A stretch of 64,000 nt of DNA, taken from the NCBI GenBank assembly GCA_014799505.1, contig JAAVHV010000008.1, positions 25,722 through 89,721 on the forward strand. Direction: 5' to 3'. The position numbers and the translations under genes were made by a program. Shown in pieces: positions 7,834 to 62,013 of this stretch (its first letter is position 1; every line of letters starts with the position of its first letter). The DNA comes from Clostridiales bacterium (GTDB taxonomy: Bacteria; Bacillota; Clostridia; Oscillospirales; Oscillospiraceae). The notes under the pieces were generated by a model. The model was not told the DNA's origin. It ran no database searches and saw only the letters and a program-made list of their open reading frames with translations.

Positions 7834-9024
7834 TTAGAACTCCAGATTCTTGCCGTCCTTGTCGAAGACATGGCACACATTGCCGCTGAAGGTCAGATTC
7901 AGCTTGTCGCCGGAGTGGTAAGAGTCGATGCGCTCACCATCGGCATCCATGGTGGGAACGATCACGACCACATCCTTGCCGTTGGCGTTGGCGTGGAAAT
8001 GAACCTCGCTGCCCATCAGCTCGGACACCTCGATAACGGCGGACAGGGTGTTGGCCGAATCCTTGGACAGCACCATGTGGCTGGGACGAACGCCCATGGT
8101 GACATCCTGCGCGGCCACCTTCTTGGCGGACAGATTCTTCTGCTTCTCCTCGGAGAGAACCACCTTGCAGCCGCCCACGGACACGGCGTACTTGCCGCCC
8201 TCGTTGACCAGCTTGGCGTCGAAGAAGTTCATCTGCGGGGTGCCGATGAAGCCGGCCACGAACAGGTTGGCGGGATGGTCGAACACCTCCTGGGGAGTGC
8301 CGATCTGCTGGATGAAGCCGTCCTTCATGATGACGATACGGTCGCCCAGGGTCATGGCCTCGGTCTGGTCATGAGTGACGTACATGAAGGTGGTGTTGAT
8401 CTTCTGGCGGAGCTTGATGATCTCGGCGCGCATCTGGTTACGGAGCTTGGCGTCCAGGTTGGACAGCGGCTCGTCCATCAGCAGCACCTTGGGCTCACGG
8501 ACGATGGCGCGGCCGATGGCCACACGCTGACGCTGACCGCCGGACAGAGCCTTGGGCTTACGATCCAGATACTGGGTGATGTCCAGGGTCTCAGCCGCCT
8601 CGCGCACAGCCTTGTCGATCTGATCCTTGGGCATCTTGCGGAGCTTCAGGGGGAATGCCATGTTCTCATACACGGTCATGTGGGGGTACAGAGCGTAGCT
8701 TTGGAACACCATGGCGATGTCGCGATCCTTGGGGGCGACGTCGTTCATCAGCTTGCCGTCGATGTACAGCTCGCCGCCGGAAATCTCCTCCAGGCCGGCC
8801 ACCATGCGCAGGGTGGTGGACTTGCCGCAGCCGGAGGGGCCGACCAGCACGATGAACTCCTTGTCCGCGATCTCCAGATTGAACTTCTGGACGGCGATGA
8901 CGCCCTCGTCCGTGACCTGCAGATTGGTCTTCTTCTCGGGCTCGCCCTTCTTCTTCTTCGCCTTCTTCTGGTCGCCGCTGTGGGGATAGATCTTCATGAT
9001 GTTCTTCAGGGACAAACCGGCCAT
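7834..9024 (-). CDS. Carbohydrate ABC importer ATPase (UgpC/MsmK type)
   Basis: Energises sugar importers of the CUT1 class. The 396-residue protein has Walker [11 protein letters not shown]-loop [10 protein letters not shown], signature LSGGQRQR, Walker [13 protein letters not shown] and switch His in THDQTEA, followed by a C-terminal regulatory OB-fold (about residues 235-396). Unlike the textbook MsmK, about 25 residues rich in Lys and Gln (around [13 protein letters not shown]) are inserted after the first beta strand. No permease or binding-protein genes lie beside it, so it is probably a shared ATPase for several transporters. The start follows the family pattern ([13 protein letters not shown]); no strong ribosome-binding site precedes it, so the exact start is less sure. 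Confidence 0.9.
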
Positions 9025-9160
9025 AAGTACCCGACTTTGATGGAGCGGCCTCCGCCATCTCCACCTCATTCCCGGACGCATATGTTCCGGGAACCTTGCG
9101 ACAGGTCTCCACACTGCCGCACCGCAAGTCGCAGCGGTATTTTTCCTCCTTTTTTCAGTA

Positions 9161-9192
9161 CCGCGGACTATTTGGAATGGAGTAGTCCGCGG
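9161..9192 (-). other. Leader hairpin upstream of the ATPase gene
   Basis: CCGCGGACTA (9161-9170) and TAGTCCGCGG (9183-9192) form a perfect 10-bp stem in the predicted transcript leader. A second dyad, TTCCCGGA / TCCGGGAA, lies at about 9069-9091, close to the start codon. No known riboswitch class is recognised. Confidence 0.45.
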
Positions 9193-9290
9193 CCCGTCAA
9201 TTTAGTGCGCCCGCAGGCGCTGGTATGGAAAAGCGGCCCATAAGCTCCGCCGGATCCATCATTATGGATGAACGCTATGGTACTGGTAAA

Positions 9291-17614: not shown

Positions 17615-17655
17615 GAAAACAAAATCAGCCCGGAAACGAACCGTAATTCCGCGCT
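17615..17655 (-). terminator. Riboswitch-controlled terminator
   Basis: Read on the minus strand, GCGCGGAA and TTCCGGGC pair at 7 of 8 positions around a TTACGGTTCG-type loop, then comes TGATTTTGTTTT. It lies between the purine aptamer and the permease start, so ligand binding would favour termination. Confidence 0.65.
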
Positions 17656-17667
17656 TGTTTTTGCAGC

Positions 17668-17728
17668 CGGTAGTTGCCGGATAGGCCGACAGTAGAAACT
17701 CGGGACCCATTTCGCCCCAATTATACCG
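17668..17728 (-). promoter_or_regulatory. Purine riboswitch aptamer (guanine type)
   Basis: On the minus strand the 61-nt element folds as the purine aptamer. P1 is CGGTA/TACCG. P2 is GGGGC/GTCCC with loop GAAATGG. The J2/3 core GAGTTTCTACT matches the canonical AGTTTCTAC exactly. P3 is TGTCGG/CCGGCA with loop CCTAT. The loop GG (L2) and CC (L3) can make the usual kissing pairs. The specificity base before P1 3' is C (AAC-TAC), which means guanine or hypoxanthine; the U51 position is kept, which argues against the 2'-deoxyguanosine variants. A terminator follows. Confidence 0.88.
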
Positions 17729-17815
17729 AAGGATATTGAGTTGACAGGAGAATAATACCATAAATCCGGACGGAATTCTACAGTTTTTTTCTTTTCCGGA
17801 AAACTTCATTACATT

Positions 17816-61564: not shown

Positions 61565-61640
61565 GCGAGTGTAGCTCATCTGGTAGAGCGCCACCTTGCC
61601 AAGGTGGAGGTAGCGAGTTCGAGCCTCGTCACTCGCTCCA
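61565..61640 (+). tRNA. tRNA-Gly (anticodon GCC)
   Basis: A 76-nt cloverleaf. The acceptor is GCGAGTG / CACTCGC, the D arm GCTC...GAGC, and the anticodon stem CCACC / GGTGG with loop TTGCCAA (anticodon GCC). The T arm has TTCGAGC. The discriminator base is T, followed by an encoded CCA end. It has its own promoter and terminator. Confidence 0.97.
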
Positions 61641-61685: not shown

Positions 61686-61708
61686 AAAACTGTGCGAGCC
61701 TTCGGCGA

Positions 61709-61839
61709 CCTACTTTCTGCTTGTGCAGAAAGTAGGCAAAGACACACTTAGGGAGCACCCGCCGGTTCGGCTTCGGGCCGCATGGCGGCCCTAGCTCACA
61801 GGCGGGTTTCCCCCTAAGAATCCCCCTGTTACGGGGGAT
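61709..61839. repeat. Nested-hairpin intergenic element
   Basis: A first stem CCTACTTTCTGC / GCAGAAAGTAGG (61709-61736, perfect 12 bp) is followed by three nested stems in one long arm: CTTAGGG/CCCTAAG (61747-61753, 61812-61818), ACCCGCC/GGCGGGT (61757-61763, 61801-61807) and GGGCCGC/GCGGCCC (61775-61781, 61785-61791). A final hairpin ATCCCCC/GGGGGAT lies at 61820-61839. There is no coding potential. It could be a repeated extragenic palindrome or a structured RNA. The rest of 61840-62013 shows nothing. Confidence 0.6.
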
Positions 61840-62013
61840 GCCCTATACGTCTGTCAGTCCATACCCTGCCGGCGCGTGCGGCTTTCACCCCAGCTCCCCC
61901 CATTTGCGCTGCCGCTTGTCTCTCGTGACTGAACCCGTTTGCCGCCCTCGGTTCTGCGCCTGGAAAGTGCGTCGAGCGACCTTGGTGTTTGAACAATTTC
62001 AGCAAATTCCCCA

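What the first reader, a model, noticed from the sequence alone, without database searches (positions are those of the whole stretch)
61709..61839. Nested multi-stem element after tRNA-Gly
Seen: three co-axial nested stems (7 bp each) in one arm of 72 nt, preceded by a 12-bp perfect hairpin and followed by a 7-bp one, all with GC-rich paired strands and unpaired loops kept apart. There is no frame and no clear promoter. Inference: either a repeated palindromic element of this lineage or a structured small RNA co-transcribed past the tRNA terminator.
Basis: seen in the sequence. Interest (0 to 1): 0.5.

Follow-up and report, generated by a model that had tools for sequence, protein, structure and literature searches.

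The report
Leftover arm of hairpin-ended mobile repeat
The folded stretch after the glycine tRNA gene is a surviving end of a DNA repeat family that has spread through many gut Clostridia, usually as two facing copies that can flank small regulator genes; it matters because its hairpin ends evolve under a strict internal pairing rule and, in two genomes, it crowds around the replication origin.

Summary
The fold is real and as described: a 12-bp hairpin (H1, 61709-61736), a 72-nt arm of three nested stems (61747-61818) and a 7-bp hairpin (61820-61839); RNA fold z = -5.7. It is not unique and not a tRNA-linked sRNA. It is one end ("arm", about 61698-61966) of a dispersed Clostridia repeat family missing from Rfam: 49 of 151 sampled genomes of the family, up to about 136 arms per genome. 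Intact units are two facing arms (about 560-640 bp), sometimes around XRE/DUF6809 genes (1.1-1.4 kb). At the orthologous tRNA-Gly/ilvE site, relatives show an empty site, the same solo arm, a hairpin-only remnant, a gene module without arms, or a nearly complete arm-XRE-arm element; the window holds a solo arm. H1 covaries almost only by full Watson-Crick switches, and its loop covaries with a downstream linker (78/78 pairs; 0 of 5,000 swaps as good). In two genomes units cluster around the origin (29 of 33 within 150 kb of dnaA; 14 of 17 on the parS contig). No mobiliser was found: RAYT transposase is absent from most carriers tested, and no target duplication is visible. Best reading: a new REPIN/MITE-like family; the window copy is defunct.

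The parts
61565..61640 (+). tRNA-Gly (gcc), upstream neighbour, not part of the element
   Evidence: ARAGORN, Rfam RF00005
61646..61677 (+). tRNA terminator hairpin (13-bp perfect arms); left border of the insertion zone
   Evidence: inverted repeat I1; terminator-like hairpin also present in the empty relative G534
61698..61966 (+). whole D1-type arm of the dispersed element (outer end at left, inner end GCGCCTGG at right)
   Evidence: conserved in aligned copies; gap 438 nt here versus 133 nt in empty G534
61698..61706 (+). outer mini-hairpin GCCTTCGGC at the outer terminus
   Evidence: fold; recurs as GCCTCCGGC or CCCTGCCGGG at outer ends
61709..61736 (+). H1, 12-bp perfect hairpin, loop TTGT
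   Evidence: covariation in A2, 99.7% paired, 6 of 12 pairs changed on both sides
61722..61724 (+). H1 loop bases of the loop-linker pairing S2 (TGT with 61744-61746 ACA)
   Evidence: 78/78 Watson-Crick, 3 of 3 pairs covary; 0 of 10,000 and 0 of 5,000 swaps as good
61744..61746 (+). linker bases of S2, after CAAAG
   Evidence: as for 61722-61724
61747..61818 (+). P2/P3/P4 nested arm (three 7-bp stems)
   Evidence: fold; P2 93.6% paired with two pairs changed on both sides
61820..61839 (+). P5 hairpin ATCCCCC/GGGGGAT
   Evidence: poorly kept across copies, 76.6% of cells paired
61863..61966 (+). distal conserved block of D1 arms (CCCTGCCGGCGCG...CCCCCCATTTGCGCTGCCGC...CTGCGCCTGG)
   Evidence: alignment of 32 arms

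Best explanation
The feature is a solo, probably immobile, left (D1) arm of a non-autonomous mobile element. SHOWN: the family is dispersed in Clostridia, concentrated in the Oscillospiraceae. Its intact unit is two arms of about 250-300 nt facing each other, with an H1 hairpin at both outer ends, either abutting (about 560-640 bp) or flanking small XRE / DUF6809 genes. Site occupancy differs between close relatives, including at the window's own tRNA-Gly/ilvE site, where the window copy is most simply what remains of a larger element. INFERRED: the unit moves in trans through an enzyme that recognises the hairpin ends, most likely as single strands. H1 would be the structural mark and the loop-linker pairing an internal check of the end. 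When one arm or the cargo is lost, the rest stays in place as an inert intergenic hairpin array, as at the window site.
For: Copies at unrelated intergenic sites in the own genome and many relatives. Convergent pairs of constant size: 21 paired units in complete genome G168, units of about 640 bp that are 93-96% identical at three sites in G016. XRE + DUF6809 module between arms in L022, L006, L029 (= L191) and DUF6809 between arms in L183; XRE cargo of another type in L253. At the orthologous site: G534 empty (133-nt gap against 438), G528 same solo arm, G538 only H1 and the next stem strand, G015 DUF6809/XRE module without arms, in the orientation that would put a D1 arm on the tRNA side, G533 D1 arm + XRE + decayed right arm. 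degV-gntR site: paired unit in G016, solo arm in G022. Loop-linker covariation. H1 substitutions nearly all full Watson-Crick switches (1,722 WC, 6 G.T, 16 A.C, 20 other), fitting a DNA-level palindrome better than a wobble-tolerant RNA.
Against: No enzyme was found. Y1 transposases (RAYT type) are absent from G000, G002, G013, G016, G017, G021 and G022, which all carry arms. No target-site duplication is visible in G016 or G168 units, though these are not fresh insertions. No excision or movement was observed. Pair maintenance without wobble could also come from hairpin-templated repair rather than selection. G527 and G017 carry other sequence at the site, so its history is not a single simple insertion.
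Confidence: 0.78

Rival explanations
1. The arm is a functional structured RNA (sRNA or 3'-UTR module) transcribed from the neighbouring gene, spread because it is useful as a terminator or mRNA-end stabiliser.
For: Strong fold, helix covariation and a pseudoknot-like loop-linker pairing. Arms within 35 nt of an upstream gene are nearly always co-directional with it (17 of 18). Some arms end in a terminator-like hairpin (L030).
Against: Overall orientation to the upstream gene is balanced, 38 to 33. Arms occur as facing pairs in which both strands would have to serve. The arm is missing at the same site in close relatives. G.U pairs are no commoner than A.C. No Rfam match.
Confidence: 0.12
2. 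It is an ordinary MITE: terminal inverted repeats of a classical double-stranded DNA transposase, with the stems incidental.
For: Inverted ends, short non-coding body, intergenic location, occasional cargo.
Against: No target-site duplication seen. No transposase between arms was found among the units read. The covarying hairpin and loop-linker pairing are hard to explain by end recognition through sequence alone, because the sequence varies while the pairing is kept.
Confidence: 0.2
3. The units have a role in the origin domain (for example DNA topology, SMC or replication-fork handling) and are kept there by selection; the window arm is an outlying or relict copy.
For: 29 of 33 units within 150 kb of dnaA in G168, binomial p about 6e-25, one of them between dnaA and dnaN; 14 of 17 units of G016 on the contig holding all four parS sites, p about 4e-14. 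Arms lie beside parS sites in G022 and G021.
Against: In G083, G072, G010, G152 and G019 the copies are spread over many contigs. Many relatives lack the family altogether. Local hopping from an origin-proximal donor would give the same picture.
Confidence: 0.1

Closest known systems
REP/REPIN elements with RAYT (Y1) transposases (PMC3116915)
   Same: Intergenic, palindromic, replicative unit is an inverted doublet, singlets are defunct remnants, copies dispersed and non-autonomous.
   Different: Arms are about 250-300 nt with several stems instead of a short REP; can carry XRE/DUF6809 genes; no Y1 transposase in most carriers tested; loop-linker pairing; origin clustering in two genomes.
MITEs and foldback elements
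   Same: Short, mostly non-coding, inverted ends, many copies, presumably moved in trans.
   Different: No target duplication seen, end sequence varies while pairing is conserved, no parental IS identified.
IS200/IS605 ends (subterminal hairpins plus guide/cleavage-site pairing)
   Same: Hairpin at the end plus a short nearby sequence that base-pairs with part of it (comparison from general knowledge).
   Different: The two ends are inverted to each other, pairing is loop to 3' linker rather than guide at the hairpin foot, and no TnpA was found in most carriers tested.
Stem-loop sequence families of bacterial genomes (PMC2267715)
   Same: Repeated intergenic stem-loop sequences, surveyed also in Clostridium tetani and C. 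perfringens.
   Different: The part of that survey's species table read here lists no Oscillospiraceae; no sequence of this family was found in the literature searched.

Membership tests
REPIN / REP | unit is an inverted pair of palindromic sequences in intergenic DNA | tested here: met
REPIN / REP | a RAYT (Y1) transposase in the same genome, flanked by the repeat | tested here: not met
   PF01797 absent from 7 arm-carrying genomes of the genus, four of them 92-95% complete; G168 not tested
REPIN / REP | short REP of about 20-30 nt (size from general knowledge) | tested here: not met
   arms of about 250-300 nt
MITE | terminal inverted repeats, short non-coding body | tested here: met
MITE | target-site duplication | tested here: inconclusive
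   none visible in G016 or G168 units, but no fresh insertion with a matched empty site was available
MITE | parent transposon with the same ends | tested here: inconclusive
   only XRE/DUF6809 cargo found among units read
Rfam structured RNA families | score above the family's gathering threshold | tested here: not met
Structured RNA in general | covarying helices | tested here: met
Structured RNA in general | expressed transcript | not testable with these tools
   no RNA-seq available
Phage or plasmid element | copies in phage or plasmid records | tested here: not met
   no blastn match in either collection

The most novel reading that the evidence does not exclude
A new class of hairpin-ended bacterial mobile DNA, processed as single strands, in which each end carries its own base-paired identity tag (H1 loop to linker), which can carry XRE-type regulators as cargo, and which targets or is retained in the replication-origin region.
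Probability: 0.22. Interest if true: 0.8.

Novelty: new variant of a known kind. Interest (0 to 1): 0.55.

Why it matters
The family is abundant in an important group of gut bacteria, yet it is not in Rfam and no literature on it turned up here. It offers a clean comparative system: the pairing rule between hairpin loop and linker points to recognition by base pairing, and the origin clustering in two genomes of different genera asks whether movement follows replication or whether the units do something there. It also gives a context for the uncharacterised DUF6809 family, part of which lies between these arms.

Tried and rejected
The Pfam call on the first bases of G168 failed because of stops; dnaA, dnaN and recF there were recognised by eye from the translations. 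The first gene-calling model picked antisense ORFs and was discarded for a retrained one. RNA-strand reading by wobble asymmetry: no support, G.T 6 and A.C 16 in H1, G.T 9 and A.C 19 in P2. A triplex reading of the mirror symmetry between H1 and the linker was considered and dropped, because informative copies (for example L140, L146) keep Watson-Crick pairing and lose the mirror. DUF6809 as a general partner: only 3 of 30 DUF6809 loci are flanked by arms. A strict 3'-UTR element: orientation balanced. Phage or plasmid origin: no hits. Literature: no description found in seven searches.

Full report
Observation. The described structure is present exactly where stated: a 12-bp hairpin, three nested 7-bp stems in a 72-nt arm and a 7-bp hairpin. 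Its predicted RNA fold is 5.7 standard deviations below dinucleotide shuffles, none of 200 as stable. There is no convincing gene and no Rfam family. The full 290-nt stretch is also more stable than shuffles, but less strikingly (z about -3.5 to -3.8; DNA on the plus strand, RNA on either strand).

It is a dispersed repeat. The own genome, a 65%-complete assembly of 1.86 Mb that sits near Pseudoflavonifractor/Flavonifractor as judged from the ilvE relatives, holds at least eight places with similar sequence. Among 40 relatives 11 match by blastn, with about 30 matches in G019 and none in many others. Aligned copies share a common layout: an outer mini-hairpin, H1, a CAAAG linker, P2 with inner stems, P5, then a well conserved distal block ending GCGCCTGG. 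The window feature therefore runs from about 61698 to 61966.

The unit is two facing arms. Copies often occur as convergent pairs with H1 at both outer ends. In complete genome G168 21 of 33 clusters are pairs, most 550-650 bp. In G016 three units of about 640 bp at different sites are 93-96% identical. Two arm types exist, D1 and D2. Where genes lie between the arms (L022, L006) the order is D1, DUF6809 (3' end towards D1), XRE regulator (3' end towards D2), D2; L029 carries the same gene pair between two D1 arms. Another unit in G016 carries a different XRE set between its arms. DUF6809 itself is much more widespread than the arms: 3 of 30 loci examined are flanked by them.

Covariation. On 26 aligned arms, H1 is 99.7% paired, six of twelve pairs change on both sides and none on one side only. 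P2 keeps 93.6%. The three loop-linker pairs (S2) are Watson-Crick in 78 of 78 cells and all three covary. No shuffle of 500 reaches the observed paired percentage, double changes or covariation score, and partner-slid controls are far lower. Taking each arm's own loop and linker against swapped partners, no swap does as well: 0 of 10,000 for 27 distinct combinations, 0 of 5,000 for 69 combinations that include other genera. These swap tests ignore relatedness, so the figures are not probabilities. Exceptions exist in G168, where arms with the loop GCTTGCCC or GTTTGCCC do not follow the rule well. H1 wobbles are rare and lean to A.C rather than G.T (16 against 6 among about 1,760 cells), so nothing suggests an RNA of this strand; a DNA hairpin, or hairpin-templated repair that keeps arms matched, explains it better.

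The window site in relatives. One search reads the tRNA-Gly to ilvE interval in close relatives. G534 is empty: terminator, then the ilvE promoter region, 133 nt against 438 nt in the window. G528 has the same solo arm. G538 keeps only H1, the linker and one strand of the next stem. G015 (the same sequence as L055) has the DUF6809/XRE module without arms, oriented so that a D1 arm would lie on the tRNA side, where the window has one. G533 has a D1 arm, an XRE module and a decayed right arm. G527 and G017 have other sequence there, and G022 no arm. A second site, degV-gntR, has a pair in G016 and a solo arm in G022. The simplest account is that complete elements inserted and then decayed piecemeal; the window copy is such a remnant. 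Whether all of these descend from one insertion is not settled.

Distribution. With covariance model R1, 49 of 151 genomes of the family and 40 of 106 genera match at E <= 0.001, with stricter filters and at most 22 candidates scored per genome, so counts are lower bounds. In the class, 11 of 341 genomes match at 1e-5, including several outside the family, one with ten matches, the most that could be scored. Phage and plasmid collections gave nothing. Fuller scoring gives up to 136 matches (G019) and 107 (G069).

Origin clustering. G168's record starts at dnaA-dnaN-recF. 29 of 33 arm clusters lie within 150 kb of it, against 10% expected, one of them between dnaA and dnaN; 23 stretches of 20 kb sampled elsewhere gave two weak hits. 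In G016 14 of 17 units lie on the 356-kb contig that carries all four parS sites. Other high-copy genomes do not show this clearly. The binomial p-values treat units as independent, which local hopping would violate.

Location. In G168 the units are intergenic, 14 between tandem, 5 between convergent and 1 between divergent genes. Over all arms read, orientation to the upstream gene is balanced, but those within 35 nt of it are almost always co-directional (17 of 18), as expected for insertions that spare promoters.

Mechanism. Dispersal, unit structure and site polymorphism are shown. Movement in trans, single-strand recognition of H1 and the role of S2 are inferred. The RAYT model was tested by searching Y1_Tnp: absent from seven arm-carrying genomes of the genus, present in only some others. 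No target duplication could be recognised. The element works like a REPIN, with singlets as remnants of inverted doublets (PMC3116915), but fails the RAYT and size criteria, so it is not filed as one.

Verdict. The window copy itself is an ordinary remnant; the family behind it, apparently undescribed, is of moderate interest, mainly for the pairing rule and the origin bias.

Noticed in passing
G168 (L217-L221, L227-L232); G016 contig C1: Units crowd around the replication origin (dnaA in G168, parS in G016), far above chance; cause unknown.
   Followed up: partly
G021, contigs C1-C20 and others: 43 parS-like 16-mers (at most one mismatch) scattered over many contigs, against 2-11 in the other genomes searched.
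   Followed up: no
L022:934-1489, L029:1922-2495, L055:2330-2896: Divergent DUF6809 / XRE gene pair, also found without the arms; DUF6809 is multicopy in several genomes of the genus, function unknown.
   Followed up: partly
L219, L220, L227, L230, L231, L232 next to units: A second repeated hairpin, GGGAGTGAC...GTCGCTCCCAC followed by T-rich sequence, recurs directly outside many G168 units.
   Followed up: no
L277 and L278, tRNA-Gly to ilvE interval: G527 and G017 share another inserted sequence at this site (GATTTCAATGCTCGGGC...CCGCACTCGC), possibly a further repeat family.
   Followed up: no
window 9019-9200 (-): malK-I RNA motif, 139 bits.
   Followed up: no
window 17651-17748 (-): Purine riboswitch aptamer just above the gathering score.
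   Followed up: no
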